48,652 nt of DNA, from contig JACRBX010000013.1 in assembly GCA_016219225.1 (NCBI GenBank), forward strand, positions 1 through 48,652. Direction: 5' to 3'. The notes under the pieces were generated by a model. The model had not been told where the DNA came from. It ran no database searches and saw only the letters and a program-made list of their open reading frames with translations. Each line of letters starts with the position of its first letter. The first letter of the stretch is position 1. This DNA comes from Deltaproteobacteria bacterium. GTDB lineage: Bacteria; Desulfobacterota; RBG-13-43-22. Both the position numbers and the translations under genes were made by a program. Positions 12,717 to 29,868 of this stretch are shown in pieces.

Positions 12717-15503
12717 TCAAGAGAGCCCCAGTTTATTGATGCGCTTTTGAAGCGTGGTACGCTTCATTCCTAAGAACTCCGCGGCCCCACCCCGACCGCC
12801 GATCTTCCCGCCGGTCCTTTCCAGCGTGTATTTAATATAACGCCGCTGCAATTCATCCAGCGAGGGTTGACCGTTATAGAATTGTCCTGAGTTTGTCTTC
12901 TTACCGGCGGGCAGATCTAACTCCAGGGTTTCATCATGGGAGAGGATTACGGCCCGTTCAATGATGTTCTGCAATTCCCTGATATTGCCAGGCCAGTGAT
13001 AATCTATCAATCGGCCTTCATCTTCCGATGTCAGCTCGTATAAAGGACGTTTGGATTTTGCCGAATACTTCATCAGAAAATGGCGAGCCAACAACGGCAC
13101 ATCCTCCAATCGTTCACGCAGGGGCGGGAGGGTGATGGGCACTACGTTAAGGCGGTAATATAGGTCTTCCCGGAAGCGGCCGGCAGTGACCTCAACCGCC
13201 AGATCTCGGTTTGTGGCCACCACCAGTCGAAAATCGGAGGAGATGGTCTGCGTCCCTCCTAACCGGACCAGGGTTTTTTCCTGTAAAACACGGAGCAATT
13301 TGACCTGGACAGACTTGGGAATCTCCCCTATTTCATCGATGAACAGGGTTCCGCTATGGGCCAGCTCCAGACGTCCGGCCTTGCGGCGTTCGGCCCCGGT
13401 GAAGGCCCCTTTCTCGTGACCGAACAGTTCACTTTCCACCAGGTTCTCAGGGATGGAGGTGGGGTCGACAATCACAAAGGGCCCTTCGTTCCGGCGGCTC
13501 ATCTGATGGATCCTCTGGGCCAGCAGCTCCTTGCCAACGCCGGTCTCGCCGAGTATCAGAATGGTGCTGTCTGACGAGGCCACGCGGTCCACCTGTCCCA
13601 GGATTTTTTTCATCACCTTACTCTCGGCTACAATATTCAGACCATCCGGGTATTGATCCAGATGGATCTTTTCCGTTGCCGATTGCTCCAGGCGCTGTGA
13701 AAATTCATACAGGCGGTTGATAAAAATACTCAGAGAGCTCCCCAGTCTGGTCAGCATGGGTTTTTCAAGGAAATCAAAACAATCTTTGACATAAGAATTG
13801 TCATGATAGAGAACGCCGCCGGTCTGTCCGGCTATTTCAAGGGGCAGACAGAGGATGGCCCTGACCTTATGGGGCCAATAACCGACCCCTTCCAGTCGAG
13901 CCACATGAGGCTGTTTTTCCCTGAAGGATTTGGCTATCAAGGCCAGATTGGACTTGAACGCTTCCGAAAACACTTCGCTTTGGGTCAAATTGTAAGAGCC
14001 CCGGAAGACCGGCTTTTCTTTGCTCTTTTCCCGGTTGAACCAGAAAAGGCCCCCCCGCTCGGCGCCGAAAAAACGGTTGGTGGCCGCCACGGCCCTGGCC
14101 ATCAGGATGTCCAGGTCGGCAGACGGGGCGAGTTCCTGAATCATGGAGACAAATTTTTCCGTTAATTCTTCGCTGTTTTCCTGATTGACCTGGCCGGATG
14201 GGTGCACTGTCAACAAATGGCGCAGGTCGTCCGGAAAGAAAACATCTCCGTAGCCGGAAAAACCGTACCAGGCCTTTTGGGCATAGGCCCGGGCCTTTTC
14301 TTTTTGGTTCACTTTCAGTTTAAGCCGGGCCAGCTCCAGTCTGGTCTTGGCCAGTTGAATGGAGTCGCCGGATCGGCACAGGAGTTCTTCACTGGCCTGA
14401 AGCTCGGCTTCGATGAAGTTGTGGGATTCCTCCCTGGCGGCGGCATCCATGGCCCGCAGCCGGTGGGCGACCCCGCGCAGATGGATGTTAGGTTCCTGCA
14501 AATGCCTTTCGATCTCTTGATGATAACTGAGGTCGGGAATGGGTTTCATGCCCAGCCGGTTGAATTCATAAAGGTGTTCCAGGGCCAGGGGAGAGGCGTA
14601 TTGCCGGATCAGGCCGGCGGTTTTCCCATGCTTGATATTTTTTGATAAGGTCTCCCAGGCCTCGTGGGGGTGTCCATCCATCAGTTGACAATGAGACAGA
14701 TTTCCAAGAGCAAAGTAATAAGCCAGATCATTTTTGGTTTTTATAGCCTCCTGCCAGGCCCCGTTCAAATGTTGGAAGGCCTCTTCCTTCTTCTTGATCA
14801 TCAGGAGCACAATGCCCAGCACGGCCCGTATGGTGGTGGCTAAAGACCGGTCGGATCTTTCCAGGGCCAGGCGACGGTAATAATCCAGGGTGCCTATGGC
14901 TTGATGGAAACGCCCCAGATAGGCATAACAATAGGCCAGCCAGATGGGACCGGACGGGTTCAGGGCCATCCCCTTGCCGCCGGATTCGTAGATTTGGGCG
15001 GCCCGCTCGAAGTGGGGTAAGGCGTCGTTGAAAAGACCCTGGATGTGATAATAAAACCCCAGGAATTCTGCTGAGCGGCTCAAGATATCCTCGTCACCCA
15101 GGTCTTCCACCTCGGTTTTACCCTCGGCAAAGAGGGCCAGGGCCTCGTGGCGGCGGTGGGCAAAATAATAAAAACGGCCGAGATGCATAATGATCAAGGC
15201 CCGGGAACGCCGGTCGCCCAGGCGTTCGGCAGCGGTTTTAGCGGTTTTTAAATTTGGGGCCGAATCCGTAAAGCCCTTGCCCAGGGCGAAACAGAGATTT
15301 GAAAATTCGAGGGTGATAGAGACCAGCAGATCATCACAGCCCCGGTCCGCAGGACAGGAGGAAAGTCGTGTCAGCACCTGTTTTTGTCGGAGCCAGGCCA
15401 ATTCCAAATCCCCGTCGCTCAAGGCCTTGTGGGCCAAATCCCTTTCCAGATAAGCAGCTTCCTTGATTTGAGCAAGATTCAAAGCAGCAGGATTCGGGTT
15501 CAC
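12717..15503 (-). CDS. Sigma-54-dependent transcriptional activator with TPR, GAF, AAA+ and Fis-type HTH domains
   Basis: The GTG at 15503 was chosen, preceded by GGAGGT (15509-15514) five bases away; a longer frame begins at 15524 but its start would lie upstream of this ribosome site. Layout of about 928 residues: helical TPR-like repeats (about 1-420), a GAF-like sensor (about 450-600), and an AAA+ domain with Walker A GETGVGKE near 651 and the sigma-54 contact loop GAFTGA near 698. Then comes a Fis-type helix-turn-helix at the end (GAAEFLGMKRTTLQKRINKLG). No response-regulator receiver domain is present, so the signal is probably a small molecule or partner protein sensed by TPR/GAF. It is divergent from the ligase operon, whose promoter has a -24/-12 box and upstream palindromes, its probable targets. 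Confidence 0.92.
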   Translation of the reverse strand: MNPNPAALNLAQIKEAAYLERDLAHKALSDGDLELAWLRQKQVLTRLSSCPADRGCDDLLVSITLEFSNLCFALGKGFTDSAPNLKTAKTAAERLGDRRSRALIIMHLGRFYYFAHRRHEALALFAEGKTEVEDLGDEDILSRSAEFLGFYYHIQGLFNDALPHFERAAQIYESGGKGMALNPSGPIWLAYCYAYLGRFHQAIGTLDYYRRLALERSDRSLATTIRAVLGIVLLMIKKKEEAFQHLNGAWQEAIKTKNDLAYYFALGNLSHCQLMDGHPHEAWETLSKNIKHGKTAGLIRQYASPLALEHLYEFNRLGMKPIPDLSYHQEIERHLQEPNIHLRGVAHRLRAMDAAAREESHNFIEAELQASEELLCRSGDSIQLAKTRLELARLKLKVNQKEKARAYAQKAWYGFSGYGDVFFPDDLRHLLTVHPSGQVNQENSEELTEKFVSMIQELAPSADLDILMARAVAATNRFFGAERGGLFWFNREKSKEKPVFRGSYNLTQSEVFSEAFKSNLALIAKSFREKQPHVARLEGVGYWPHKVRAILCLPLEIAGQTGGVLYHDNSYVKDCFDFLEKPMLTRLGSSLSIFINRLYEFSQRLEQSATEKIHLDQYPDGLNIVAESKVMKKILGQVDRVASSDSTILILGETGVGKELLAQRIHQMSRRNEGPFVIVDPTSIPENLVESELFGHEKGAFTGAERRKAGRLELAHSGTLFIDEIGEIPKSVQVKLLRVLQEKTLVRLGGTQTISSDFRLVVATNRDLAVEVTAGRFREDLYYRLNVVPITLPPLRERLEDVPLLARHFLMKYSAKSKRPLYELTSEDEGRLIDYHWPGNIRELQNIIERAVILSHDETLELDLPAGKKTNSGQFYNGQPSLDELQRRYIKYTLERTGGKIGGRGGAAEFLGMKRTTLQKRINKLGLS

Positions 15504-15583
15504 CGAGCACCTCCAATTATTCAAAAAATGAAAAGAATGTCAGCCTTTCATAGCATAATAATAAACATAAAACCAGAATGATT

Positions 15584-15726: not shown

Positions 15727-15742
15727 TGGCATAAGTTTTGCT
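15727..15742 (+). promoter_or_regulatory. Sigma-54 (-24/-12) promoter of the catabolic operon
   Basis: TGGCAT-AAGTT-TTGCT fits the consensus TGGCAC-N5-TTGCW with one mismatch, and GG (15728-15729) and GC (15740-15741) are exactly 10 bases apart. Transcription would begin near 15753, about 45 bases before the first ligase ATG. Confidence 0.82.
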
Positions 15743-15797
15743 CTGAATAGCCTAAAGAATTTAAAATCTAAATTATCAAAGAATTTTTCTGCAGAAA

Positions 15798-17399
15798 ATG
15801 GGCAACAATCTTTCAGGATCTTTAGCCATTGATCTCATAGCCAAAGCCGAGAGTCACCCTGACTTCCCGGTTGTCACCTTTGAAAACCATCCCTGGCCGG
15901 ATGAGGTGCTGACCTACGCGGATATTGTTATCAAGGGAAACAAACTGGCCCGGGCCATTGGAAAAATGGGTTTATGCAGGGGAGACGTTTTCTCCATCAT
16001 CATGCGCAACCATCCGGAAACGGTGATCGCCATGTATGCGGCTTCGGTTTTGAATGCCGTCCTTATGCCTATCGACCACCAAATGAAAGGGGACCAGCTC
16101 TATGGGCAGATCAAGGACTCCGGTTCCAAAGGAATAATCGCAGATGGTGAATTCATGGATTCTGTCGAAGAGATCCTGAAAAACGGAGCGGATGTCCGGC
16201 TGATCGGATGTCTGCACCAGACAGTCGAACAGAGAGGGCCTGTTGCTGCGGATTATCCCGATTTAAGGGAAATCCTGGAAGGTCCGGAAGTTCCTATGCT
16301 GGCGCCCCGGGCCGGGTCAGTCACTGAACCCTTTCAGATCAATTACAATTGGGAACCCGGCGTTAATCCGAGAAGCATCCCCATAGGCTACGATCGTATC
16401 CGGCAGGCCTGTTTCCTGGCTGAGAATGCCTGGCGATATGTTCCTCAGGACAGGCTTTATACCGGCATTTCATTGTCCCACTGGAATGCCCAGATGATCA
16501 CCCTTTTTCCGGCCCTGTATCAAAAAATCCCGGCGGTCATAAGCCGCCAATTCTCCAAGAATCGTATTTGGGAATTCTGCCATCATCACCGATGCACCAC
16601 CTTCTCTCTTTTGGGGGGAATGCTGTTGAGTATTTACGCCGAGCCGCCCAGGCCGGATGACCGGGACCATTCCGTCGGGGTGGTCCTGAGCACCGGTACA
16701 CCCCGGGGGCTCCGGGAGGCCTTCCAGAACCGCTTCGGGGTGGTCATCCATGAATGGTACGGTTCGGGTGAGGGGGGATTTGCTCATAATCCGCCCGGTG
16801 CAGGTCCGGCCGGTTCTTTCGGCAAGCCGATGCCTGGCATGATTGAGATGAAGGTAATCCAGGAAGACGGCGCCGAGTGTGCGCCTTATGAGATCGGTGA
16901 ATTGATCCTGCGCAATGGATGCGGTGCAACCGGGAGGATGTGCCAGGCTGTACCGGCGGCCCCGGGGGCCAAGACGCCGAAAGGATGGCTTCGCAGCGGA
17001 GACATGGGCCACCAGGATGCCAAGGGATGGTTTTATTTTGATTTCGCCAAGGGTGACGGCCTGAGGCGTAAAGGGGAATTTATTCTGCCTGAACAGGTGG
17101 AAGGGGTGATGGCCGGGCACCCGGATGTGATTGACGTCTGTGTCTATGGGATAAGCCTTCCCTCCGGGGAACCCGGTGATAGCGAACTGGTGGCCGCCAT
17201 CGTCCCGACCCCGGACAGGATTCCGGATATAAAAAATATCTTTCATTACTCTCTGGCTAGGCTGGAGCGGAATCAGGTCCCTGCTTACATTCAAATCGTT
17301 CCTGAAATTCCCAAATCGGCTTCCGAAAAAAATCTGAGCCAATACCTGAAAAAAAAATTCGGTACAAAGGCTGAAAATGTGTACCGTTTCGAGGAATAG
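15798..17399 (+). CDS. CaiC-like acyl-CoA ligase homologue lacking the ATP-binding P-loop
   Basis: The protein (533 residues) has the ANL (acyl/aryl-CoA ligase) fold, close to the next gene over its whole length. It retains HEWYGSGEGG (motif around 315), GWLRSGDMG and the C-terminal SASEKN with the Lys used for adenylation in active homologues. The P-loop, however, reads YNWEPGVNPRS (residues 183-193), where the neighbour has YTSGTTGDPKG at the equivalent place with no gap in the alignment. The Arg of the hinge motif is also changed (FDFAKGDG against FDYRKGGG). Loss of the P-loop predicts no or poor ATP use, so it may be a non-catalytic partner of the next ligase or a CoA thioester binding protein. 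It is the first gene behind the sigma-54 promoter. Confidence 0.85.
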   Translation: MGNNLSGSLAIDLIAKAESHPDFPVVTFENHPWPDEVLTYADIVIKGNKLARAIGKMGLCRGDVFSIIMRNHPETVIAMYAASVLNAVLMPIDHQMKGDQLYGQIKDSGSKGIIADGEFMDSVEEILKNGADVRLIGCLHQTVEQRGPVAADYPDLREILEGPEVPMLAPRAGSVTEPFQINYNWEPGVNPRSIPIGYDRIRQACFLAENAWRYVPQDRLYTGISLSHWNAQMITLFPALYQKIPAVISRQFSKNRIWEFCHHHRCTTFSLLGGMLLSIYAEPPRPDDRDHSVGVVLSTGTPRGLREAFQNRFGVVIHEWYGSGEGGFAHNPPGAGPAGSFGKPMPGMIEMKVIQEDGAECAPYEIGELILRNGCGATGRMCQAVPAAPGAKTPKGWLRSGDMGHQDAKGWFYFDFAKGDGLRRKGEFILPEQVEGVMAGHPDVIDVCVYGISLPSGEPGDSELVAAIVPTPDRIPDIKNIFHYSLARLERNQVPAYIQIVPEIPKSASEKNLSQYLKKKFGTKAENVYRFEE

Positions 17400-17436: not shown

Positions 17437-19050
17437 ATGGATATGTCACAGACCAGAATACCGGATTTTTTTCCCCGTGAATTAGAAGCCAAGGCGGAAG
17501 AAAACCCCGATTTCAAAATTATGACTTTTGAAAACGGAGATTATCCCGATGAAGTGCTGACCTATGCGGATATAGTCATCAAGGGCAGGAAGATGGCCGG
17601 CTTATTGAAGGACAGGGGCATAAAGAAAGGCGACACCTTTATTCTCCTGATGAGAAATCACCCGGAGTTCGTTTATTGTCTTTATGCCGCCACGGCCCTG
17701 GGGGCGATCATGGTGCCTGTCGATCCCCGCATAAAAGCGGAGAGACTTCAATTCCTGATAAAAGATTCCAAATCCCGGGGGATCATCCTGTCCAGCGAGT
17801 TTATAGACCATATCCAGGGGCTTCTTCAAGGCCTCCCGCAGGTCCCGGTGATCGGTGTGGCCTGTAAGCAGGGCTTCGAGGCGCTCGGGATGGGGGAATA
17901 CCCTGATCTTAACGAAATCCTGAAGGGACCGGAAGTCCCTCCCCCTGATCAAAGGAACCAGACTCCTGATGCCCCGATTCAGATCATGTATACCTCCGGA
18001 ACTACCGGGGACCCCAAGGGGATTGTCATCAGGGGAAGCCGTTTTACGAACTTTTCCATAATGGCCCAGCTCGTCTGGCAATACGGCCCCGAGGATAAAC
18101 TTTATACCGGACTTTCGCTGACCCACGGCAACGCCCAGGGTGTGACTTTGATCCCTTCCTTATTTCATTCGATTCCTTCAGTCATCAGCCGGAAATTCAC
18201 CAAAAGCCGTATATGGGACCTCTGCAGAAAATACGGGTGCACGAATTTCTCCCTGTTGGGAGGGATGATGATGGGAATTTACAGTGAAGTGCCGAGATCG
18301 GACGATGCCGATAACCCGGTGCGCGTGGTCCTGAGCGCCGGCACCCCCCGGGCTATATGGGAGGCCTTTGAAATGCGTTTCCAGGTGGTTATCCATGAAT
18401 GGTACGGGGCCATGGAAGGGGGATTCGCCCACAGGCCGCCCGGTGTCGGACCGATAGGCTCTTTCGGCAAACCCGTCGAAGGGCTGGCGGAGATGAAGGT
18501 GGTCCGGGAGGATGACCGTGAATGCCTTCCCGGCGAAATCGGCGAGCTGATCAGCCGCGAGACAGGCCGGACTGTGGAAGTGGAATATTTCGGAAACCAG
18601 GAGGCCTCGGAGAAGAAAACCCGTGGAGGCTGGCTCCGTTCCGGAGACATGTGCCATCGGGACGAAGAGGGCTATTTTTTCTTCGATTACCGCAAAGGTG
18701 GGGGACTGCGAAGGGCGGGAGATTTCATCATGCCAGAACATGTAGAGGCCATTATCGCCAGACATCCGGATGTGGACGACGTCTGCGTCTACGGCATTCC
18801 GGCGGCATCGGGGGCCCCCGGGGAGAGCGATGTCGTGGCCGCTGTGGTCGCGGTCGAAACAGGTACCCTGAACATCCGATCGGTCTTCAGGCTTTGTGAC
18901 GAAAATCTGGAAAGAAACGCCGTGCCTTCTTTTATTCAAGTCATCGGCGAAATTCCCAAAACGGCCTCGGAGAAAAACCTCGATCGGGTGCTGAGGGAAC
19001 AATTCAGGAAGGATGGGGAGGATGTATACCATCTGGGGGATTATCTATAG
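17437..19050 (+). CDS. CaiC-like acyl-CoA ligase (AMP-forming), complete motifs
   Basis: The enzyme has 537 residues with intact ANL motifs: P-loop MYTSGTTGDPKG (184-195), EWYGAMEGG, GWLRSGDMC, the hinge FDYRKGGG and the catalytic Lys in KTASEKN near the C-terminus. It would convert a carboxylate, CoA and ATP into acyl-CoA, AMP and pyrophosphate. It resembles crotonobetaine/carnitine-CoA ligases more than medium-chain ligases, judged by the EWYG motif, but the substrate is unknown. It starts 37 bases after the P-loop-less paralogue and is surely co-transcribed. Confidence 0.88.
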   Translation: MDMSQTRIPDFFPRELEAKAEENPDFKIMTFENGDYPDEVLTYADIVIKGRKMAGLLKDRGIKKGDTFILLMRNHPEFVYCLYAATALGAIMVPVDPRIKAERLQFLIKDSKSRGIILSSEFIDHIQGLLQGLPQVPVIGVACKQGFEALGMGEYPDLNEILKGPEVPPPDQRNQTPDAPIQIMYTSGTTGDPKGIVIRGSRFTNFSIMAQLVWQYGPEDKLYTGLSLTHGNAQGVTLIPSLFHSIPSVISRKFTKSRIWDLCRKYGCTNFSLLGGMMMGIYSEVPRSDDADNPVRVVLSAGTPRAIWEAFEMRFQVVIHEWYGAMEGGFAHRPPGVGPIGSFGKPVEGLAEMKVVREDDRECLPGEIGELISRETGRTVEVEYFGNQEASEKKTRGGWLRSGDMCHRDEEGYFFFDYRKGGGLRRAGDFIMPEHVEAIIARHPDVDDVCVYGIPAASGAPGESDVVAAVVAVETGTLNIRSVFRLCDENLERNAVPSFIQVIGEIPKTASEKNLDRVLREQFRKDGEDVYHLGDYL

Positions 19051-19217: not shown

Positions 19218-19235
19218 AAAAGGAGAATGGATCGT

Positions 19236-20489
19236 ATGCGCAAAGTCAAGATTATCGGGGGGGCCATGACTAAATTCGGACGTCACCTGGACCGTAATTT
19301 AAAATCACTGGTTGAAGAAGCGGTCAGCGGCGCCTTGAAAGATGCCGGAGTGTCCAAAGATCAGCTTGAAGGGGTCTGGGTGGGCAATGCCTCCCAAGGC
19401 ATCCTGCAGGGGCAGGAATCTATCAGGGGTCAGGTGGTCATGAGGGCCATGGGCATCGGCGGTATTCCGGTTATCAACGTTGAAAATGCCTGCGCCTCCT
19501 CGGCCACAGCCCTCCACGGGGCCAGGGCCATGGTGGCCCTGGGGGACATGGATGTGGCCCTGGTGGTGGGTATGGAAAAGATGTACTCGGAAGACCGAAG
19601 CAAAGTCCTGCCGGCCTTTACGGGGTGCATGGATGTGGAGATTCTGCCTCAGCTTATGCAGGCCTTCGCCGAGCAGGAGGAAAGGATCAAGAAGGAACAG
19701 ATGATCCGGGGGGAAGGCCGGAAGCAGAAGTCCGGGCAGCGTTCCGTGTTTATGGATGTCTATGCCCTGAATGCCCGGAGCCACATGAAAGAGTACGGCA
19801 CCACCCAACGGCAGTTGGCCGTCATCGCCTCGAAAAATCATTATCACTCCTCCATGAATCCCCTGGCCCAATATCAAAATACCTTTACCGTGGAAGAGGT
19901 CCTAGAATCCCCGGAAGTCACCTGGCCTCTAACCCGGCCCATGTGCTCACCCATCGGAGACGGTGCGGCTGCCCTGATCATCTGCTCGGAAGCCTTTGCC
20001 AGGAAGATAGGGGCTGCCTATGGTATCGAAGTGGCCGCCTGTATGTTGGCCAGTGGAGAGGACCCGGACCAGGAAAAAGGCGCCAGCACCCTTTCCCGTC
20101 TATCCAGGAAGTCTTATGAGAAAGCCGGCCTAGGGCCGGAAGATATCGACCTGGCCGAGGTCCACGATGCCACGGCCTTCGGGGAGTTGTATGCCAGCGA
20201 GGAATTGGGTTTTTGCCCTCTGGGCGAGGGCGGGGCCTTTGCCGAGGCCGGTCACAGCACCCTGGGCGGAAAGCTTCCCATCAATGTCTCCGGCGGCCTG
20301 GAATCTCAAGGCCATCCCATCGGGGCCACCGGTGTGCGGCAGGTGGTGGAGCTTTATTGGCACCTGGCCGGGAAAGGGCAGGCCGGCCAAAGGCAGGTCG
20401 AGGGGGCCAAGGCCGGACTGGCCCAAAATGCCGGTGGAACCGTCAATGGATCGGAGGGGGCCCTGTCCGTGACCATTTTGAAGAGATAA
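19236..20489 (+). CDS. Thiolase family protein (SCP-x/acetyl-CoA acetyltransferase-like)
   Basis: Start chosen at the ATG at 19236 because AGGAG (19221-19225) is 10 bases upstream; the in-frame ATG at 19227 lies only one base from it. In 417 residues the nucleophilic Cys86 sits in NACASS and His360 in GHPIGATG, both hallmarks of thiolases. The second Cys of classical degradative thiolases is not visible: the equivalent end reads LAQNAGG, as in SCP-x-like thiolases. Expected role: CoA-dependent cleavage of a 3-oxoacyl-CoA at the end of the oxidation cycle. It is co-directional with ligase and dehydrogenase genes. Confidence 0.85.
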   Translation: MRKVKIIGGAMTKFGRHLDRNLKSLVEEAVSGALKDAGVSKDQLEGVWVGNASQGILQGQESIRGQVVMRAMGIGGIPVINVENACASSATALHGARAMVALGDMDVALVVGMEKMYSEDRSKVLPAFTGCMDVEILPQLMQAFAEQEERIKKEQMIRGEGRKQKSGQRSVFMDVYALNARSHMKEYGTTQRQLAVIASKNHYHSSMNPLAQYQNTFTVEEVLESPEVTWPLTRPMCSPIGDGAAALIICSEAFARKIGAAYGIEVAACMLASGEDPDQEKGASTLSRLSRKSYEKAGLGPEDIDLAEVHDATAFGELYASEELGFCPLGEGGAFAEAGHSTLGGKLPINVSGGLESQGHPIGATGVRQVVELYWHLAGKGQAGQRQVEGAKAGLAQNAGGTVNGSEGALSVTILKR

Positions 20490-20531
20490 GGATCAAAAAA
20501 CATTTTTACCGATTCAGAAAGGAAGAAGACC

Positions 20532-21515
20532 ATGCCTCGAAGCTTCGAAGAACTCAAGCCCATGCTCCGACCTACGGGGGTCCATATGGGCGTGATGCGA
20601 GTGGATGCGGAAAAGTGCACCGCCTGCGGCCTGTGCCTCAGGAACTGTCCTTTCAAGTGCTGGGAGATGGGTGAAAAGGGGTTTCCCGTCATGAAGGCGG
20701 ATAATGCCTGCTTTTCCTGTTTCAACTGCCTGGTAGCCTGTCCGACGGAGGCCGTTTCCATCGTTGAATCATACCATGTGGATGAAGGCTTTTTTGACAC
20801 CTGGCTCCCCGTACTCAAAATGCCTCTCGAACCCAGGGATGCTGAAGACCGACCCGATGACTGGAACAAGGTGGAGCGGACCATCCTGGAGCGGCGCAGT
20901 GTGCGTAATTTCAAAGAAAATCCCATTCCCGAATCGCTGATACGGCGGGTCCTGGAAGCGGGACGTTTCGCCCCCAGCGCCGGCAACCATCAACCCTGGA
21001 AGTTCACCGTGGTCACGGACAAGGCCTTCATCGATCAGCTTGAGGAGGCCTGTTATGCTGTCTGGAACGGGATGTACCCCATGTTCCAGGATGACCAGAC
21101 GGTCATGAACCTGGTAGATACTGTGCCGGTTGGGGCCTTCGATCCCCGGGTCCAGGGGGGAATAAGGTGCGTGATCCGAAAGGAGCTGCCCATCTTTAAT
21201 AATGCCCCGGTGGTTATCTTCCTGGGTTGTCACGAAAATATGGCCTTTCCGGAGCAACATTCCGGCATCTGCGGACAGAACATGAACCTGTCTGCCAAGT
21301 CCCTGGGACTGGGTTTCTGCTGGAGTAATTTCGGATCGGCCGTCAATTTCATCCCGGAGTTGAAGTCCAGACTGGGCTTCGATGACCCCTGGCGGGTTTA
21401 TTCGTCCCTGTGTCTCGGGTTCCCCAAATTCAAACAGGAAGGTCTGGTCCCCCGCTATTTCAGGCCCATAACCTGGTTTCGCCCCGGGACCGAGGGACCC
21501 CAGGTGGAGGGATAG
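20532..21515 (+). CDS. Nitroreductase family protein with N-terminal 2x[4Fe-4S] ferredoxin domain
   Basis: This gene encodes 327 residues. Two cluster motifs lie in the first 75 residues: CTACGLCLRNCP and CFSCFNCLVACP. A nitroreductase/FMN fold follows with RRSVRNFKENPIP and GRFAPSAGNHQPW (about 120-155). Such fusions pass ferredoxin electrons to FMN and reduce flavin-accessible substrates; the in vivo substrate is unknown. A good ribosome site (GGAAGA) precedes it, 42 bases after the thiolase stop. In a fatty-acid type operon it may provide a low-potential entry or exit for electrons, which is inference. Confidence 0.85.
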   Translation: MPRSFEELKPMLRPTGVHMGVMRVDAEKCTACGLCLRNCPFKCWEMGEKGFPVMKADNACFSCFNCLVACPTEAVSIVESYHVDEGFFDTWLPVLKMPLEPRDAEDRPDDWNKVERTILERRSVRNFKENPIPESLIRRVLEAGRFAPSAGNHQPWKFTVVTDKAFIDQLEEACYAVWNGMYPMFQDDQTVMNLVDTVPVGAFDPRVQGGIRCVIRKELPIFNNAPVVIFLGCHENMAFPEQHSGICGQNMNLSAKSLGLGFCWSNFGSAVNFIPELKSRLGFDDPWRVYSSLCLGFPKFKQEGLVPRYFRPITWFRPGTEGPQVEG

Positions 21516-21524
21516 TTCTATCAA

Positions 21525-21660
21525 AATGCAAGTTTCAAGATGCAAGATGCAGGTTTCAAAGCAGAGATGAACAGTGAACCGTATTTTCGAACTAAATTGC
21601 GAATCATTTTTTCCAATTAATCATACTTGCAACTTGGGACTTGAGACTTGAAACTATTTT
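21525..21660. repeat. Intergenic short-period inverted repeat (CAAGATGCAAG type)
   Basis: Bases 21527-21558 contain repeated GCAAGTTTCAAGAT units and 21624-21655 contain ACTTGCAACTTGGGACTTG units, which are complementary in character. The space between could fold into a long hairpin. It lies between the nitroreductase and the acyl-CoA dehydrogenase. Confidence 0.55.
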
Positions 21661-21685
21661 TTCTTATTAAGAAAGGAGAAAGCCC

Positions 21686-22930
21686 ATGGAATATTTAGAT
21701 CTGGATCTCAATTTGACCGACAAGGATAGGGCCATCCGGCAAAGCGCCCATGAATTCGCCAAAGAGGTCATGCGTCCCATTGCCAAGCAGTTGGACGAGA
21801 TGAAACCGGAGGAGGCCATCGCCCCCGGCTCACCCTACTGGGATTTTTTAAAACAGGCATATGAACTGGGATACCACAAATTCGGCCTTCCGGAACAATA
21901 CTCGGGTATGAACACTTCATTGCTGCAAACCATGCTGATCGTGGAAGAACTGGCCTGGGGTAGCGCCGGTCTGGCCGTGGCCCTGGGCGTGGCCGGCATG
22001 CCGGCCCAGTTGGCTGCCCTGGCTCCGAATGATGACCTGGTAAAAAATATCATCGTTCCTTTTTGCGAATGCCGTGACGGCAGCATGCGGGGCTGTTGGG
22101 GCATTACCGAACCCGACCATGGCTCGGACACCCTGATGCCCGGTTATCCCAGTTTCCGGGACCCTAAAATCGAGGCCAACTGTCGGGCCCGGCTGGACGG
22201 CAATGAATGGGTGATCAACGGCCAGAAATCTTCCTGGGTGTCCTGCGGGACTGTTTCCACTCACTGTCTTCTGTACTGTCAGATCGATTCTTCCATGGGG
22301 CATGCCGGCAGCGGAATCTTTATCGTGCCGGCCGATCGCCCCGGTGTCTCCAAGGGCAAACCCCTGAACAAGCTCGGCCAGAGGGATGAGAATCAGGGAG
22401 AGATCTTCTTTGATGAGGTTCGTATTCCGAAATCGTACCAGATCTGCGGGCCGGAGGCCTATGAAGCCTTTTTGGAAGGCACCCTGGCCGGGACGATGTG
22501 TATGATGGGCATCATCGGAACAGCCATAGGCCGGGCGGCTTATGAAGAATCCCTGGCCTACGCCAAGAAACGGGTCCAGGGGGGGAGAACCCTGATCGAT
22601 TATACCCACGTCAAAATGACCCTCTTCAATATGCTCCGGCGGGTCGAAGCCAGCCGTTATTTGACCCGGAACGCCTTCATCTATAACCAGACCGTGGCTC
22701 CACCGGCCCTGGAATATTCCCAAATGTCCAAGATCCAGGGGACTGAAACGGCCTTTAAGAACACTCATGAAGCCATCCAGATTTTTGGCGGGAACGGGCT
22801 GGCCAAAGAATTTCTGATCGAAAAACTTTTCCGGGATGCCCGGGCGACCCTGATCGAGGACGGATCCAATCAGATTATAGCCATCGCCGGAGGACACACA
22901 TTAGCAGAAACGTATCCAAGAAGAAAATAA
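21686..22930 (+). CDS. Acyl-CoA dehydrogenase
   Basis: The enzyme has 414 residues and starts after AAAGGAG. The flavin and substrate region WGITEPDHGSDT sits near residue 140, and the C-terminal QIFGGNGLAKEF is followed by the catalytic position IEDGSNQ, where Glu is kept. It would oxidise an acyl-CoA to the 2-enoyl-CoA, passing electrons to ETF encoded downstream. An unusually acidic and proline-rich loop (LMPGYPSFRDPKIEANCR) follows the SDT motif. The presence of a second, longer dehydrogenase suggests a two-subunit or two-step system. Confidence 0.88.
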   Translation: MEYLDLDLNLTDKDRAIRQSAHEFAKEVMRPIAKQLDEMKPEEAIAPGSPYWDFLKQAYELGYHKFGLPEQYSGMNTSLLQTMLIVEELAWGSAGLAVALGVAGMPAQLAALAPNDDLVKNIIVPFCECRDGSMRGCWGITEPDHGSDTLMPGYPSFRDPKIEANCRARLDGNEWVINGQKSSWVSCGTVSTHCLLYCQIDSSMGHAGSGIFIVPADRPGVSKGKPLNKLGQRDENQGEIFFDEVRIPKSYQICGPEAYEAFLEGTLAGTMCMMGIIGTAIGRAAYEESLAYAKKRVQGGRTLIDYTHVKMTLFNMLRRVEASRYLTRNAFIYNQTVAPPALEYSQMSKIQGTETAFKNTHEAIQIFGGNGLAKEFLIEKLFRDARATLIEDGSNQIIAIAGGHTLAETYPRRK

Positions 22931-23034
22931 ATTTGCAATTCGGATTTCGGAATAAACCGTTTTCATAAATCGTGGTGACTTAAACAATGTTCCGACATTC
23001 GTTTAAAAAATATTCATCAATTGTGGTGTAGTAA

Positions 23035-23092
23035 TGCAGTTTCAAGGTTCACGCATGACGAACCTTGCACCTTGCACCTTGAACCTTTTTTC
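23035..23092. repeat. Intergenic TTCAAGG/CCTTGAA inverted repeat
   Basis: Sequence with CAAGGTTCACGCATGACGAACCTTG is followed by CACCTTG units. It is a palindromic cluster in the gap between the two acyl-CoA dehydrogenases, of the same short-period type as at 34240-34292. Confidence 0.5.
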
Positions 23093-23110
23093 CCGAAAGT
23101 GTGAACAACC

Positions 23111-24892
23111 ATGGCTGAGACGATCATTAAAGGGGGAAATTTTTTGTTCGATTCCGTTCATTCGGAGGATGTTTTCACCCCCGAGGACATGGACGGGGAA
23201 CAGAAACTGCTTTCCCAGGTGACCGATGAATTTTTGCAGGGCGAGGTGGAACCCCGCATCAAGGAACTGGAGGCCGGGGATGAAGGACTGATGGTGGCCC
23301 TTTTCAAAAAGTCCGCCCCCCTGGGATTGCAGGGACTGGATATCCCGGAAGAGTTCGGCGGTATGGAACTGAAGGCCACCAGTTCTCTGATCGTTACGGA
23401 AAAGACGGCCTTAGGCGGTCCCTTCGGTGTGGCCAGCCTGGATCATACGACCTTTGCCACTTTGCCGATCCTTTATTTCGGGACAAAGGAACAGAAGAAG
23501 AAATATCTGAAGGCCCTGGCCGAGGCCGTTAAAATCGGGGCCTTTGCCTTGACCGAACCAAATTCAGGATCGGATGCCCTGAATGCCGGCACCACGGCCA
23601 CCCTTTCTGAAGACGGCGACTATTACCTCCTCAATGGTGAAAAACAGTTTATCAGTAATAGTGCCTATGCCGGTCTTTTCATTCTCTTTGCCAAAATTGA
23701 TGACAGAGATTTTTCGGCCTTTATCGTCGACCGGGATTCCGAGGGGCTGTCTCTGGGGGAAGAGGAGGACAAGATGGGTATCAAGGGCACTTCCACCCGA
23801 AGCGTCTTAATGCAGAATGTCCGGGTGCCCTGTCAAAACCTCCTCCTGGGGCCGGGGAAAGGGGCCCAGGTGGCCTTCAGCACCTTAAACCTGGGCCGTT
23901 ACAAAATGGCCGGTCTGTGCCTTGGAAACGCCAAGCTGGCCTTGAAGGATTCCATCGGTTATGCCCGGAACCGGCTCCAGTTCGGCCGGCCTATTGCCGA
24001 TTTCGGCCTCATCAGGGAAAAGATAGCGGAGATGGCGGTTCGTATATTTGCCGCTGAAAGCATGCTTTACCGGACGGCCGGGCTGATTCAGGAAGGACTT
24101 GAGGGAATGGATTTTTCCCTTGATCAGCCCGGGCCGGATCAGTCCGCAAGGCTCCAGAAATACGCTATGGAATGCTCCATCAATAAGATCTATGCCTCGG
24201 AGATGCTCCATTATGTGACCCATGAGGCGGTCCAGATCCATGGGGGCTATGGCTATATTAAAGACTACCCGGTGGAGCGGTATTACCGGGATGCCCGTAT
24301 CAATTTGATTTATGGGGGGACCAACGAGATCAACCGCCTGTTGATTGCCCGCCTCCTTTTTAAGAAGGCCCTATCCGACGGCCTTTCTCTGACCGATGAC
24401 CTGGTGCAGGCCCTTTCGGAAAAGAGAGGCCTGTCTGCCCCTTCCGGTTCCGATGGCCTCGGGTTGGAGGAAATGGCCTTTCGAGTGGAAAAGGCCAAGG
24501 GGGCGACCCTGCAGGCTGTTAAGGCGGTTTATGATGCCTATCCCGAAGACCTGGAAGAACAGCAGGAGGTGGGGGGAATGATTGCCAACATCCTCATCGA
24601 AATCTTTGCTATGGAAAGCAGCCTGCTCAGAATCCTGAAGATCACAGAAAAACGAAAAGGGGAGGGGGCTGAAATTCCAGAGGCCATCTCCGGGGTGATC
24701 GTCAGCGAGGGCTTAATGAAGGTGCGCCAATATTTTAAGAGCCTTTTCAGCAATCTTTTTCAGGGAGATGAACTCAAAGACCGTTTGACGGCCTTAAGGA
24801 TCCTGAGCGAACCTTTACCGGCTGATTTAATCGGCCTTCGACGGAAGATCGCCGAGGCCATGATCAAGACCGGGAGATATTTTATTGTTTGA
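23111..24892 (+). CDS. Long acyl-CoA dehydrogenase family protein (FadE-like) without the canonical catalytic Glu
   Basis: With 593 residues, the dehydrogenase core (residues about 1-420) has ALTEPNSGSDA and QIHGGYGYIKDYPVE and is followed by a C-terminal helical extension of about 170 residues, as in very-long-chain/FadE types. Where family members have Tyr/Phe-Glu-Gly-Thr-Asn, this protein has YGGTNEIN: Gly402 (GGG at 24314-24316) replaces the catalytic base. The alternative Glu position used by isovaleryl-CoA dehydrogenases is also Gly (LNLGRYKMAG). Thus it may use another base, act on a different bond, or be a structural partner of the shorter dehydrogenase. Electron acceptor would be ETF. 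Confidence 0.85.
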   Translation: MAETIIKGGNFLFDSVHSEDVFTPEDMDGEQKLLSQVTDEFLQGEVEPRIKELEAGDEGLMVALFKKSAPLGLQGLDIPEEFGGMELKATSSLIVTEKTALGGPFGVASLDHTTFATLPILYFGTKEQKKKYLKALAEAVKIGAFALTEPNSGSDALNAGTTATLSEDGDYYLLNGEKQFISNSAYAGLFILFAKIDDRDFSAFIVDRDSEGLSLGEEEDKMGIKGTSTRSVLMQNVRVPCQNLLLGPGKGAQVAFSTLNLGRYKMAGLCLGNAKLALKDSIGYARNRLQFGRPIADFGLIREKIAEMAVRIFAAESMLYRTAGLIQEGLEGMDFSLDQPGPDQSARLQKYAMECSINKIYASEMLHYVTHEAVQIHGGYGYIKDYPVERYYRDARINLIYGGTNEINRLLIARLLFKKALSDGLSLTDDLVQALSEKRGLSAPSGSDGLGLEEMAFRVEKAKGATLQAVKAVYDAYPEDLEEQQEVGGMIANILIEIFAMESSLLRILKITEKRKGEGAEIPEAISGVIVSEGLMKVRQYFKSLFSNLFQGDELKDRLTALRILSEPLPADLIGLRRKIAEAMIKTGRYFIV

Positions 24893-24966
24893 AACGAAAA
24901 GACGGTTCAAGGTTCAAAGTCCGGAAAATCAAGTTCGGAGTTTAGAGTTCGGAGTTCGGAGTAAAT

Positions 24967-25010
24967 CATTTTCATGTTTCGTGTCGCCCCGGTGGGGAAT
25001 AAGGGTTTGG
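24967..25010. repeat. Copy of the dispersed TTTCATG-TTCGTG unit
   Basis: ATTTTCATGTTTCGTGTCGC continues into CCC-GGTGGGGAATAAGGGTTT. It is related to copies near 19072, 19176 and 28959. It lies between the long dehydrogenase and etfB and is preceded by GTTCGGAGT-type tandem units (24935-24962). Confidence 0.55.
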
Positions 25011-25059
25011 AAATAAAAAGCATAAAAATAGATTCAATCTCGTTAAAAGAGGGAAACCG

Positions 25060-25842
25060 ATGCACATCATCGTCTGTTTAAAACAAATCATCGACCCGGA
25101 GACCCCGGCAGAAGACTTTAGGGTGGATCCTGCAGCCAGGCGGGCCATTTTACCTCAGGACCGGGGATATGTCATCAGCGATTATGATGCCAATGCCCTG
25201 GAAGGGGCACTCAGGCTCAAAGACCGGGGAGATTCGAAGGTAACAGTATTCAGCCTGGGGGAAGAACGGACCAAGGAAGCCCTGCGCAAGGCCCTGGGTA
25301 TGGGGGCCGATGAGGCTATTCTTTTGAGTGATCCTCTGTACGATGATGCCGACAGCTTTGCCGTGGCCCATGTCCTGAGTCAGGCCATCAAGAAGGCCGA
25401 TCCCTTTGACCTTATTTTGTGCGGGAGACAGGAAGGGGACTGGGACGCCGGCCAGGTGGGCTCAGGAATGGCCGAGCTTCTGGGCCTTCCCAGCGCCACC
25501 TGTGTAGGCGGTATAGAAGTCCAAGACGGAAGCATCATAGTTGAAAGAATAGTTGCCGATGGGCGGGAAACTATCGAACTCCCTTTGCCGGCTGTGCTGA
25601 CTATCAGCAGTGAAATCGGTGTTCCCCGGTATGCGCCTTTAAAGGGCGTCATGGCCGCCTTTGAAAAAAACATTCCTGTCTGGAATGCCGAGGTGATCCC
25701 TCCGGCTGAATCCCGGAACCGTATGCTCGATTTGTTTATTCCGGTCCGGAAAGAAGAGGAGTGCCTGTTTATAGAAGGCGATACTCCGGAGGAGGCCGGG
25801 ATCAATCTGGCCCTGCGGCTCAGGAATGCCAAGCTTATCTGA
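25060..25842 (+). CDS. etfB: Electron transfer flavoprotein, beta subunit
   Basis: The 260-residue protein starts at ATG after GAGGGAAACC. It has the N-terminal MHIIVCLKQIIDPE typical of EtfB and the nucleotide-binding middle part LILCGRQEGDWDAGQVG. It pairs with the EtfA encoded next. The pair accepts electrons from the two acyl-CoA dehydrogenases encoded immediately upstream and probably passes them to the membrane FeS oxidoreductase downstream. Whether it bifurcates cannot be decided by inspection. Confidence 0.93.
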   Translation: MHIIVCLKQIIDPETPAEDFRVDPAARRAILPQDRGYVISDYDANALEGALRLKDRGDSKVTVFSLGEERTKEALRKALGMGADEAILLSDPLYDDADSFAVAHVLSQAIKKADPFDLILCGRQEGDWDAGQVGSGMAELLGLPSATCVGGIEVQDGSIIVERIVADGRETIELPLPAVLTISSEIGVPRYAPLKGVMAAFEKNIPVWNAEVIPPAESRNRMLDLFIPVRKEEECLFIEGDTPEEAGINLALRLRNAKLI

Positions 25843-25915
25843 TTTCGAATTTCGGAATGCGGATTTCGGAATTGAAATACCTTGAACCTTAAACCTGTTT
25901 TTATGAGAGGTTGAG

Positions 25916-26911
25916 ATGAAACAAGGGGTCTTTATTGTAGGTGAGATGAGGGATGGGAAGATGGCTTCCATAACCGCTGAACTATTAGGTGTCGGTCGGA
26001 AGCTGTCCGATGAACTGAACCAGGAACTTTCAGCCCTGTTCATAGGATTGGGTATTACCGATGCCGCCGGGGAGGCCATCGCCTTCGGGGCGGACAGGGT
26101 GTACGTCATGGATAATCCCCTGTTCAAGGATTATTTGACGGAATCCTATGTGGCGGCTTTGGAAAATTTGTGCCAACAGGCAGGACCTGGGATTTTACTT
26201 CTGGGACAAACATCGATGGGCAAGGATCTGGCCCCGTCATTGGCCTTCCGAATGAAGACCGGCCTGACCATGGATTGTGTGGACCTGACCATTGATCCGG
26301 AAACCAGGCACCTTAGAAAAACCAAGCCGGTTTATGGCGGCAATGCTTTGGCTGTATTTGTGTGTGAATCAGGGCGGCCTCAAATGGCGACCATAAGGCC
26401 AAAGGCCATGTCTCCCCTGCTCCCGGATCCTTCCCGGAAGGGTGAGGTCGTCCCCTTCGATCCGAAGATAAACCCTTCGGCCCTGCGGACCCGCTTGATT
26501 GGCAGAAAGAAAACCGAGATTGAAGGGATAAAACTGTGCGAGGCCGAGGTTGTCGTCTCCGGAGGAAGAGGCCTGGGCGGCCCGGAACCCTTCCAAAAAC
26601 TGGAGACCCTGGCCAAAATACTCCATGGTACGGTCGGTGCTTCCAGACCGCCCTGTGATGACGGGTGGGTCCCTTCCCACTACCAGGTGGGCCTGACCGG
26701 TGAACTGGTCGCCCCCAATTTATATATAGCGGTGGCCATATCCGGGGCCTCCCAGCATCTGGCCGGCATGCAGGGTTCCAAAAATATCGTGGCCATCAAC
26801 AAAAACCCCAAGGCCGGTATCTTCAGATTGGCCAAGTTCGGCATTGTCGGTGACTACCAAACCATATTACCGGCCTTTACTGAAAAATGCAGGGAACTTC
26901 TGGCGGATTAA
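25916..26911 (+). CDS. etfA: Electron transfer flavoprotein, alpha subunit
   Basis: The gene encodes 331 residues. The C-terminal FAD domain is clear: [34 protein letters not shown] and [12 protein letters not shown]. It differs from the second EtfA in this window at several FAD-loop positions (SGASQH and KAGIF here, SGAFQH and KAPIF there). Ribosome site GAGAGGTTG precedes the ATG. The adjacent membrane FeS protein starts within or just after its end, pointing to a matched pair. Confidence 0.93.
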
Positions 26912-26916
26912 AAATC

Positions 26917-28923
26917 ATGCCCTTCGTCCACCCCTCCGCTGAAACCTATTTCGGGATTCCGGGTTATGTTCTGTCCTGGGTTATTCTTATTGCAGCCCTG
27001 GCCTTATTTTCCTGTACCCTTTACCAACGGATTTTATTGCTCCGTTCCGGACAGCCGGACCCCCGCTTTTCCCAATTGGACCGAAGATTCCTGGGGTTGA
27101 TCCGTTACGGTCTGATTCAAAAAAAACAACTGCGCTATTTTGGGGCCGGTATAATTCATTATCTGATTTTTACCGGATTCATCATCCTGAGCCTCCGATC
27201 CCTGGACCTGATCATCCAGGGGCTGGGAGGCGGCTATGAGCTGTACTGGTTGAAAGGGTCTTTCGGGGGTTTTTACAACAGCTTGAAGGACGTCTTTGAA
27301 CTGCTGGTCCTGGCCGCCGGTCTCTGGGCCATCCTGAGACGGCTCCTGCTTCAGCCAGAACGCTACCGGCGCAATGGAGATCCAGGCCATCAGTCAGAGG
27401 CTTATCTGGTATTGGGCCTGATCGTTTTTCTGATGATCACGGATATCCTTTTTGAAGCCGGTCGCCTGGCTTCCACTTCCCAGGTTTCCCGGGGCTGGCT
27501 TCCGGCGGCTGCTTTGGGGGCCTGGACCCTTTCCGGATCTCTTCCGTCTACAGGGGCGGTTCTTTCCAGCACCGTCTATTGGCTGCACCTGCTGGCCTTT
27601 TTTTTCTTTTTAAACTTCCTCCCCCTGGCCAAGCATTTTCACATCATCACGGCCCTGCCCAATGTCTTTTTCCGCAAGCTTGAAAAAGGAGGGATCAAAC
27701 CGGCCCGATGGGGAATCGAAAATCCGGAAGACCTGGACAGCCTGGGGGTGGGCCGACTGACGGATTTTACCTGGAAGCACCTGCTAGACTTTTTTAGTTG
27801 CACGGAATGCGGCCGCTGTTCCGATCAATGTCCGGCCAGGGCCGTAGGCCGGCCTTTGTCTCCTAAAATGTTCACCATCAAGTTAAGGGATTACGGGTAT
27901 TCGAAGGAGGAAAACAAAATCGCGATGACCGGCGGCCTGATCACCACCGATGAAATCTGGTCCTGCACGACCTGCGGGGCCTGTGAGGAGGAATGCCCGG
28001 TCTGTATCGAGTATATTGACAAGATGATTGACCTGCGCCGTCATCTCATCGAGACCTCGCAAACTCCCAAATCATTTAATTCCGTTTTGATGCAGATCGA
28101 AAAGACCGGAAATCCCTTCGGCAAACCGGCTTCCAAAAGGGCTGACTGGACCAAAGAGGTGCCGGGACTCCTCGTCCCGATTCTGAAAGCGGGAGATGAG
28201 GCCGAGGTTCTTTACTTTGTTGACGGCTATGCTTCCTATGACCCCAGGGTCCAGATCATAGCCCAGGCTATCGTTCAGGGGCTTCACCGTTCTAACATCC
28301 AATTCGGCATCCTGGGGGCTAGAGAAAAAGATTCCGGCCATCAGGTCCGCCGTCTGGGGGAGGAAGGCCTTTTCCAAAACCTGTTGGAAGAAAATATGGA
28401 GACCCTGGGCAGCCGCCGGTTTAAACAGATTGTCACCACCGATCCCCATGCCTTCAACACCCTTAAAAAGGATTATCCCGGAGATCTTCCGGTCATGCAC
28501 TATAGCCAATTCTTTTTGCCCCTCATTCAGGACGGCCGGCTCAAACCGGCAAAGGCCCTGGCTCCCGGGGATGTCTATACCTATCATGACCCCTGTTATT
28601 TAGGCCGGCATAACGGCCTTTATGATCCGCCCCGGCAGATCCTCAAGACCTTGCCGGGCATGAACTTAGTGGAGATGCAGCGCTGCCGGGACCGGAGTTT
28701 TTGCTGCGGCGGCGGAGATGTCAATCTCTGGCATGAGATCGAAGGAGAGGAAATGCGTATGGCCGGAAAAAGGGTCCGGATGGCCCGGGATGCCGGGGCG
28801 AACGTCATCGTCACCGCCTGCCTCTTTTGCCTGCTTAATTTGGAAGATGCGGTCAAGACCGCCGGTCTGGATAAGGAAATGCGGGTAACGGATCTGATGG
28901 AATTGGTGGTTTCTACGATCTAA
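26917..28923 (+). CDS. Membrane FeS oxidoreductase, EMO-type (ETF:menaquinone oxidoreductase candidate)
   Basis: ATG at 26917 was preferred because MPFVHPSAETYFG begins the family's usual N-terminus; a longer frame begins at 26887 inside etfA. Of about 668 residues, the first 260 contain five or six membrane helices (around WVILIAALALFSC, LIFTGFIILS, LLVLAAGLWAI, LVLGLIVFLMI and WLHLLAFFFFLNF). Two [4Fe-4S] motifs follow, CTECGRCSDQCP (from residue 295) and CTTCGACEEECPVC. The C-terminal CCG domains have HDPCYLGRHN and CCGGGDVN. Membrane proteins of this layout next to etfBA are the EMO enzymes that link ETF to menaquinone in Desulfobacterota and other anaerobes. It would let acyl-CoA oxidation feed the quinone pool. 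Confidence 0.88.
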   Translation: MPFVHPSAETYFGIPGYVLSWVILIAALALFSCTLYQRILLLRSGQPDPRFSQLDRRFLGLIRYGLIQKKQLRYFGAGIIHYLIFTGFIILSLRSLDLIIQGLGGGYELYWLKGSFGGFYNSLKDVFELLVLAAGLWAILRRLLLQPERYRRNGDPGHQSEAYLVLGLIVFLMITDILFEAGRLASTSQVSRGWLPAAALGAWTLSGSLPSTGAVLSSTVYWLHLLAFFFFLNFLPLAKHFHIITALPNVFFRKLEKGGIKPARWGIENPEDLDSLGVGRLTDFTWKHLLDFFSCTECGRCSDQCPARAVGRPLSPKMFTIKLRDYGYSKEENKIAMTGGLITTDEIWSCTTCGACEEECPVCIEYIDKMIDLRRHLIETSQTPKSFNSVLMQIEKTGNPFGKPASKRADWTKEVPGLLVPILKAGDEAEVLYFVDGYASYDPRVQIIAQAIVQGLHRSNIQFGILGAREKDSGHQVRRLGEEGLFQNLLEENMETLGSRRFKQIVTTDPHAFNTLKKDYPGDLPVMHYSQFFLPLIQDGRLKPAKALAPGDVYTYHDPCYLGRHNGLYDPPRQILKTLPGMNLVEMQRCRDRSFCCGGGDVNLWHEIEGEEMRMAGKRVRMARDAGANVIVTACLFCLLNLEDAVKTAGLDKEMRVTDLMELVVSTI

Positions 28924-28958
28924 AAAATAGCCTTCAGGGATCGGGGATTGGCGAAAGA

Positions 28959-29043
28959 CATTTTCATGATTCGTGGCGCCCCATGGGTATGAAGGTTTAG
29001 TTCGAAAATAGATTTAAATATGTAGCACAGCCGCCCTCGGCTG
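28959..29043. repeat. Dispersed intergenic repeat plus exact 24-base hairpin unit
   Basis: 28959-29000 repeats the TTTCATG-TTCGTGGCGCCCC-GGTATGAAGGTTTA unit, and 29020-29043 is identical to 19137-19160 (contains CAGCCG-CCCT-CGGCTG). The order and spacing match the 19072-19160 copy, so the whole block of about 85 bases is one duplicated intergenic element. Confidence 0.7.
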
Positions 29044-29088
29044 GGAACCGCTAAAGACAGCCTTAAACCTTCTCAGGAGGTATGTTTT

Positions 29089-29868
29089 GTGGACATCATT
29101 GTCTGTGTAAAAAGGGTCCCTTTTACCCAAGAGGTGGACCTGGAGATTGGTCAGGACAAAAAGGATATCGACCGGTCCCCGCTGGTTTATGCCTTGAACG
29201 ATTGGGATGGTTATGCCATAGAAGAGGCCGTTCTGATCAAAGAGCAATTCGGCGGGACCATCACGGCCATCACCCTGGGCAGCGAAGACGATGAAGAGGT
29301 CTTAAGAAGATGCCTGGCCGTGGGGACTGACAAGGCCATGCGCATCGATCCCGGGAGCAGGGAATTGGACGGCTATGGGATTTCCAGGGTCCTTTCGGAG
29401 GTCATCAGAGGACTTTCTTTTGACCTGATTCTCACCGGTGTCCAGGCCGAAGACGACAACCAGGCCATGATCGGGATCATGACGGCCGAACAACTGGGCC
29501 TGGCCCATGCCGCCGTGGTGACCGGGATCGAGGTAAAGGATCAATCGGCCCTGATTCGCTGCGAACTGGAAGACGGGCTGGAAGAACGATCCATCCTCAG
29601 CCTCCCGGCCCTGCTGACCATCCAGAGCGGGATCAATGAACCCCGCTATGTGTCCCTCATGGGCATAAAAAAAGCGGCTAAAAAAGGGATCGAAACGGTC
29701 CTTTTGACTGATTTGAATCTGACCGAAGAGGACCTGGCCCCGAGAACGCACATCGAAGAAGTCTATCTGCCGCCGGATACCGAAGGGGCCGATATGATCA
29801 TCGGTGAGCCTTCCCGGATCGCCGAAGAGATTTTACGCCTATTGAAAGAAAAGGGGGTGAGGACCTGA
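29089..29868 (+). CDS. etfB: Electron transfer flavoprotein, beta subunit (second copy)
   Basis: GTG start seven bases after AGGAGGT. The 259-residue protein begins VDIIVCVKRVPFTQEVDLE and contains LILTGVQAEDDNQA, both EtfB features. It is clearly diverged from the first EtfB, so it is an old paralogue and not a recent duplication. Its stop overlaps the ATG of the second etfA (TGATG). A different redox partner or a different step is plausible. Confidence 0.92.
   Translation: MDIIVCVKRVPFTQEVDLEIGQDKKDIDRSPLVYALNDWDGYAIEEAVLIKEQFGGTITAITLGSEDDEEVLRRCLAVGTDKAMRIDPGSRELDGYGISRVLSEVIRGLSFDLILTGVQAEDDNQAMIGIMTAEQLGLAHAAVVTGIEVKDQSALIRCELEDGLEERSILSLPALLTIQSGINEPRYVSLMGIKKAAKKGIETVLLTDLNLTEEDLAPRTHIEEVYLPPDTEGADMIIGEPSRIAEEILRLLKEKGVRT

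What the first reader, a model, noticed from the sequence alone, without database searches (positions are those of the whole stretch)
15798..17399. Tandem ligase paralogue with its ATP-binding loop erased
Gap-free comparison with the next gene shows YTSGTTGDPKG replaced by YNWEPGVNPRS while flanking and later motifs, including the C-terminal Lys, are kept. The gene is long, open and first in the operon, so it is maintained. It may be a non-catalytic partner forming a heteromer with the active ligase, or a CoA-thioester binding or sensing protein. I know of no described role for such a pair.
Basis: partly seen in the sequence, partly recalled or inferred. Interest (0 to 1): 0.75.

Follow-up and report, generated by a model that had tools for sequence, protein, structure and literature searches.

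The report
Disabled, fast-evolving acyl-CoA ligase copy
One of two side-by-side copies of a fat-activating enzyme gene has lost its ATP-gripping loop and other parts of its ATP site; the loss is found only in this genome and looks more like a copy losing its job after a working replacement arrived next door than a new kind of two-part enzyme.

Summary
LIG1 (15798-17399) is an intact 533-aa acyl-CoA ligase homologue reading YNWEPGVNPRS where LIG2 (17437-19050) reads YTSGTTGDPKG. The damage is wider than reported: eight P-loop residues, both A2-motif residues (P94, R95) and the A8 arginine (R417), each invariant in 56/56 relatives, are gone. A5 Glu, A7 Asp and A10 Lys remain. In all, 25 of 111 near-invariant positions are lost; LIG2 loses none.

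It is not a local tandem duplicate. LIG1's sister is the loop-intact ligase of a same-genus genome (support 100/97) and its branch is about four times longer; LIG2 groups with another class's ligase. In searches of 395 and 291 genomes of the phylum, no other tandem pair appeared and every relative read keeps the loop. LIG1 changes are spread nearly evenly over conserved and variable sites, and it has no Shine-Dalgarno. Yet the frame is open, and fully neutral drift is disfavoured.

Best reading: an adenylation-dead, lineage-specific relic made redundant by LIG2, its frame kept by recency or operon polarity. A heteromeric partner role is not excluded. A conserved ligase subfamily lacking the standard loop and A10 Lys, noticed in the same genome, is the better lead.

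The parts
15798..17399 (+). LIG1: acyl-CoA ligase homologue (ANL superfamily) with degenerate ATP site
16344..16376 (+). A3/P-loop site of LIG1 (aa 183-193, YNWEPGVNPRS); DNA still shows homology to the ancestral loop
16077..16082 (+). A2-motif loss: P94H, R95Q (56/56 Pro and Arg in relatives)
16482..16484 (+). G229W beside the conserved A4 His228
17046..17048 (+). A8 arginine loss: R417A (56/56 Arg in relatives)
17328..17330 (+). Retained A10 catalytic lysine K511
17437..19050 (+). LIG2: intact acyl-CoA ligase; 0 of 111 near-invariant positions lost
15727..15742 (+). Putative sigma-54 promoter TGGCATAAGTTTTGCT, 10 of 12 consensus letters (6 of 190 background windows score this well)
15778..15797 (+). 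LIG1 start region without a recognisable Shine-Dalgarno (AAAGAATTTTTCTGCAGAAA), unlike LIG2, most operon genes and most relatives
12717..15524 (-). Divergent sigma-54 activator (TPR + AAA + HTH_8); a homologue flanks the single ligase in four other genomes
19230..20489 (+). Thiolase / lipid-transfer-like protein; 83% identical to the thiolase beside the LIG2 sister (L051)
20532..30830 (+). Downstream beta-oxidation and electron-transfer genes (ferredoxin-nitroreductase, two acyl-CoA dehydrogenases, two EtfBA pairs, Fe-S membrane protein)

Best explanation
LIG1 is an adenylation-dead, lineage-specific relic of a once-active acyl-CoA ligase. Shown: its closest relative is a loop-intact ligase in the same genus; the neighbouring LIG2 is intact and belongs to a different branch of the family; LIG1 has lost its P-loop, A2 Pro-Arg and A8 Arg and evolves far faster. 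Inferred: once LIG2 (probably arriving or retained together with the thiolase beside it) supplied the activity, constraint on LIG1 collapsed, first or most completely in the ATP site. The reading frame stays open because the loss is fairly recent and/or because, as the promoter-proximal gene of a sigma-54-driven operon, a stop or frameshift there would be polar on LIG2 and the beta-oxidation genes. At most it retains a minor non-catalytic role. LIG2 performs the ATP-dependent CoA activation for the operon.
For: Loop intact in every relative read from searches of 395 and 291 genomes, and absent only here. Always a single ligase elsewhere, closer to LIG2 (45-72%) than to LIG1 (38-56%). LIG1 + same-genus ligase clade 100/97, branch 1.38 versus 0.36. 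25/111 near-invariant sites lost against 0 for LIG2 and 4 for the sister. Changes nearly flat across conservation bins, 17/20/30/35%, against 4/7/23/59% in the sister. Extra A2 and A8 losses. No Shine-Dalgarno. Published single substitutions in the same loop of 4-chlorobenzoate:CoA ligase cut activity 1000-2000-fold (Thr161, Gly163) and A8 Arg400 about 100-fold (PMC8388817).
Against: The frame is intact over 533 codons; neutral drift producing as many amino-acid changes would have met about 7 stops. Omega = 1 on the LIG1 branch is rejected (2dlnL about 12-13). Changes are more conservative than in neutral simulation (mean BLOSUM -0.09 versus -0.70, p 0.0025). A5 Glu, A7 Asp, the RR..G after the A8 Arg, and A10 Lys remain. 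Codon composition and CAI are normal. The near-invariant losses are concentrated in the loop (8/8 versus 17/103, p 2e-6), as selective inactivation would also give.
Confidence: 0.62

Rival explanations
1. LIG1 is a maintained non-catalytic subunit that forms a heteromer with LIG2 and tunes its stability, substrate range or regulation.
For: Co-directional, 37-bp spacing, frame intact, some protein-level constraint remains; losses concentrate in the ATP site. ANL ligases are often dimers (PMC8388817). Precedents: heteromeric steroid acyl-CoA dehydrogenases from adjacent genes with only one catalytic subunit (PMC8399759) and a 4CL3-4CL5 heterotetramer (PMC8527181).
Against: No second genome has the pair; the sister and all relatives stand as single genes. 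Strong relaxation, including losses outside the named ATP motifs (W306R, V380R, Y382C). No Shine-Dalgarno for stoichiometric synthesis.
Confidence: 0.18
2. LIG1 binds CoA thioesters or acyl-AMP, as a sensor, a buffer, or a thioesterification/hydrolysis-only enzyme, having dropped the pyrophosphate loop.
For: A5 Glu, A7 Asp and A10 Lys, used for nucleotide or adenylate handling, are kept; the P-loop acts mainly in the adenylation half-reaction (PMC6122825).
Against: A8 Arg, which contacts the ribose, is lost, and G229W crowds the A4 His region. The change is confined to one sequence.
Confidence: 0.07
3. LIG1 is still an active ligase with an unusual phosphate loop.
For: With a one-residue shift the loop keeps G, N(D), P, R(K) in order (PG-VNPR versus TGDPK). 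FadD13 K172A keeps about a third of Vmax with about 10-fold higher ATP Km (PMC2793005). A different altered loop (TAAVxGRPRG) is conserved in another subfamily of this genome.
Against: Simultaneous loss of Thr184, Gly186, Thr188, A2 Pro-Arg and A8 Arg; single changes at equivalents of Thr184, Gly186 and the A8 Arg cost 100- to 2000-fold (PMC8388817).
Confidence: 0.08
4. Sequencing or assembly error produced the odd loop.
For: Draft genome in 353 contigs; a micro-indel reading of the loop is possible.
Against: Many unrelated substitutions elsewhere (A2, A8 and others); frame intact on both sides; no other copy of the segment in the genome.
Confidence: 0.03

Closest known systems
Class I adenylate-forming (ANL) acyl-CoA ligases; nearest curated models PRK06155 / PRK06187 / CaiC, all far below cut-off
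   Same: Two-domain architecture, A5/A7/A10 motifs, operon with beta-oxidation genes
   Different: A3 loop, A2 Pro-Arg and A8 Arg lost; no curated equivalog reached
Ligase of the same-genus genome (L041 9588-11183)
   Same: Sister of LIG1 in the tree, beside a thiolase 74% identical to this window's
   Different: All motifs intact, normal branch length, strong Shine-Dalgarno, no tandem partner
Heteromeric steroid acyl-CoA dehydrogenases (ChsE4/5, ChsE1/2 type; PMC8399759)
   Same: Adjacent paralogues, one lacking the catalytic machinery
   Different: There the heteromer was shown and is essential for activity, and similar pairs occur in several bacteria; here neither
Ptr4CL3-Ptr4CL5 heterotetramer (PMC8527181)
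   Same: Two paralogous CoA ligases proposed to act together
   Different: Plant proteins; the paper describes it as a complex with novel enzymatic specificity and not as a pair with a loop-less subunit

Membership tests
ANL acyl-CoA ligase | AMP-binding and AMP-binding_C domains above Pfam cut-off | tested here: met
ANL acyl-CoA ligase | A3 phosphate loop [ST]SG[ST]TGxPKG | tested here: not met
ANL acyl-CoA ligase | A5 Glu, A7 Asp, A10 Lys | tested here: met
   E325, D402, K511
ANL acyl-CoA ligase | A8 Arg (ribose contact) | tested here: not met
   R417A; role from PMC8388817
ANL acyl-CoA ligase | ATP-dependent CoA-thioester formation | not testable with these tools
   needs enzyme assay
CaiC crotonobetaine/carnitine-CoA ligase | NCBIfam equivalog cut-off (651 bits) | tested here: not met
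   131.5 bits for LIG1, 195.9 for LIG2
Obligate non-catalytic partner of a heteromeric enzyme | Pair with the same loss conserved in more than one lineage | tested here: not met
Obligate non-catalytic partner of a heteromeric enzyme | Physical complex with the active subunit | not testable with these tools
Pseudogene | Stop codon or frameshift | tested here: not met
Pseudogene or relaxed gene | Changes independent of site conservation / omega near 1 | tested here: inconclusive
   Flat bins (chi2 p 0.066) but omega = 1 rejected; the K test also flagged LIG2 and L022, so it is unreliable

The most novel reading that the evidence does not exclude
LIG1 and LIG2 form a heteromeric acyl-CoA ligase in which one subunit has given up ATP binding and serves as a structural or regulatory half, which would be the first such ligase pair known to me.
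Probability: 0.12. Interest if true: 0.6.

Novelty: new member of a known kind. Interest (0 to 1): 0.24.

Why it matters
It is a clean example of a promoter-proximal operon gene losing its catalytic site while its frame stays open, and a caution that an open frame at the head of an operon does not by itself show a maintained function. If a partner role were shown, it would add ligases to the enzyme classes with dead-subunit heteromers.

Tried and rejected
Recent tandem duplication of LIG2: rejected by the tree. Import of the loop from elsewhere in the genome: no other match beyond 14 bases. Compensated frameshift as sole cause: gapped and ungapped loop alignments both beat shuffles and similar gains occur in control pairs, so undecided. 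RELAX-like K test: K = 0.50 for LIG1, but LIG2 (0.53) and L022 (0.58) also deviate, probably because synonymous sites are saturated, so it is not used as evidence. Structure prediction from four sequences: mean pLDDT 66, loop region below 50, not used for a fold search. Literature searches for dead acyl-CoA ligase partners found nothing direct.

Full report
Observation. The open frame at 15798-17399 encodes a 533-aa protein with both ANL domains above Pfam's cut-offs. Aligned with the next gene (LIG2, 17437-19050) it reads YNWEPGVNPRS in place of YTSGTTGDPKG, without gaps. In an alignment of 57 proteins, all 56 others carry T-S-G-T-T-G-x-P-K-G; LIG1 keeps only the Pro. A5 Glu325, A7 Asp402 and A10 Lys511 are kept.

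How the loop was lost. The loop DNA is still more similar to the relatives' loop DNA than shuffled versions are (p about 0.002), so it mutated in place. It can be read as about 13 point changes in 30 bases or as -1/-2/+3 indels with fewer changes; control scans do not separate the two. No donor segment exists elsewhere in the genome.

Ancestry. The pair is not a recent local duplication. LIG1's sister is the ligase at C193 in a same-genus genome (L041, 55.5% identity, loop intact), support 100/97; LIG2's sister is a ligase in a genome of another class (L022/L051, 72%), support 100/100. In that genome the order ligase-thiolase-nitroreductase matches LIG2-thiolase-nitroreductase at 72/83/74% identity, higher than the same-genus thiolase (74%). 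I infer that LIG2 and its neighbours came as a block, or were retained as one, next to an older LIG1. In every other locus read there is a single ligase of this type, in four of them beside a homologue of the divergent sigma-54 activator. Searches of 395 and 291 genomes of the phylum (partly overlapping; three to five best candidates scored per genome) found no second pair. A scan of genome contigs with LIG1-specific peptides returned only a 42%-identical relative with an intact loop; near copies of this genome may be left out of that scan.

Selection. LIG1's branch is 1.38 changes per site against 0.36 for its sister. It loses 25 of 111 near-invariant positions; LIG2 loses none and the sister four. 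Where the ancestral residue is known, LIG1 changed at 17, 20, 30 and 35% of sites from most to least conserved, nearly flat, against 4, 7, 23 and 59% in the sister. This is strong relaxation. It is not complete: omega = 1 is rejected on this branch, changes are more conservative than neutral simulation, and about seven stops would be expected under neutrality. The first two facts also fit a branch that was constrained first and relaxed later. The near-invariant losses are concentrated in the loop (8/8 versus 17/103, p 2e-6). A RELAX-like K of 0.50 is not used, because LIG2 and L022 also deviated in controls.

Expression. A sigma-54-like promoter lies at 15727-15742 (10 of 12 letters; 6 of 190 background windows score as well), upstream of LIG1 and divergent from the sigma-54 activator. 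LIG1 has no Shine-Dalgarno, unlike LIG2 and most relatives. Codon usage is ordinary. As first gene of the operon, LIG1's frame may be kept to avoid polar effects downstream; this is inference.

Mechanism. Single changes at the corresponding Thr, Gly and A8 Arg cut 4-chlorobenzoate:CoA ligase activity about 2000-, 1000- and 100-fold (PMC8388817); FadD13 K172A raises ATP Km about ten-fold (PMC2793005). LIG1 combines many such changes, so adenylation is very probably lost. LIG2 is the working ligase of the operon. The most economical history is redundancy followed by decay of LIG1. A heteromer with LIG2 has precedents in other enzyme classes and in plant ligases (PMC8399759; PMC8527181) but no comparative support here.

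Base rate. Of 61 ANL open frames examined in this genome, 59 have a recognisable A3 loop. The exceptions are LIG1 and P0003 on contig 319. P0003 belongs to a subfamily found in 23 of 198 genomes whose members share [HY]TAAVxG[RKH]PRGA and lack the A10 Lys.

Noticed in passing
G000:C319:21582-23105 (P0003; L162 9583-11109), same genome, not in the window: ANL protein with A3 = HTAAVAGRPRGA and the A10 Lys replaced (LPKTREGEVDR). The variant is conserved: the 22 relatives aligned (matches in 23 of 198 genomes of the phylum) share [HY]TAAVxG[RKH]PRGA and lack the A10 Lys while keeping A5 and A7; a conserved apparent pseudo-ligase or non-canonical ligase subfamily.
   Followed up: partly
L162 8118-9566 (G000 contig 319): Gene directly upstream of P0003 is a fusion of DUF169 with dephospho-CoA kinase (CoaE); a CoA-synthesis enzyme beside an apparent pseudo-ligase. 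Not found within the about 1.5 kb flanks of the other loci.
   Followed up: partly
window 25060-30830: Two EtfBA pairs flank a membrane Fe-S protein of the HdrD / TfrB-like type (26917-28923) within one operon, suggesting two electron-transfer routes for the two acyl-CoA dehydrogenases.
   Followed up: no
window 19230-21515: Thiolase and ferredoxin-nitroreductase are 83% and 74% identical to those of a genome from another class, while the same-genus thiolase is 74% identical, hinting at horizontal transfer of the LIG2 block.
   Followed up: partly
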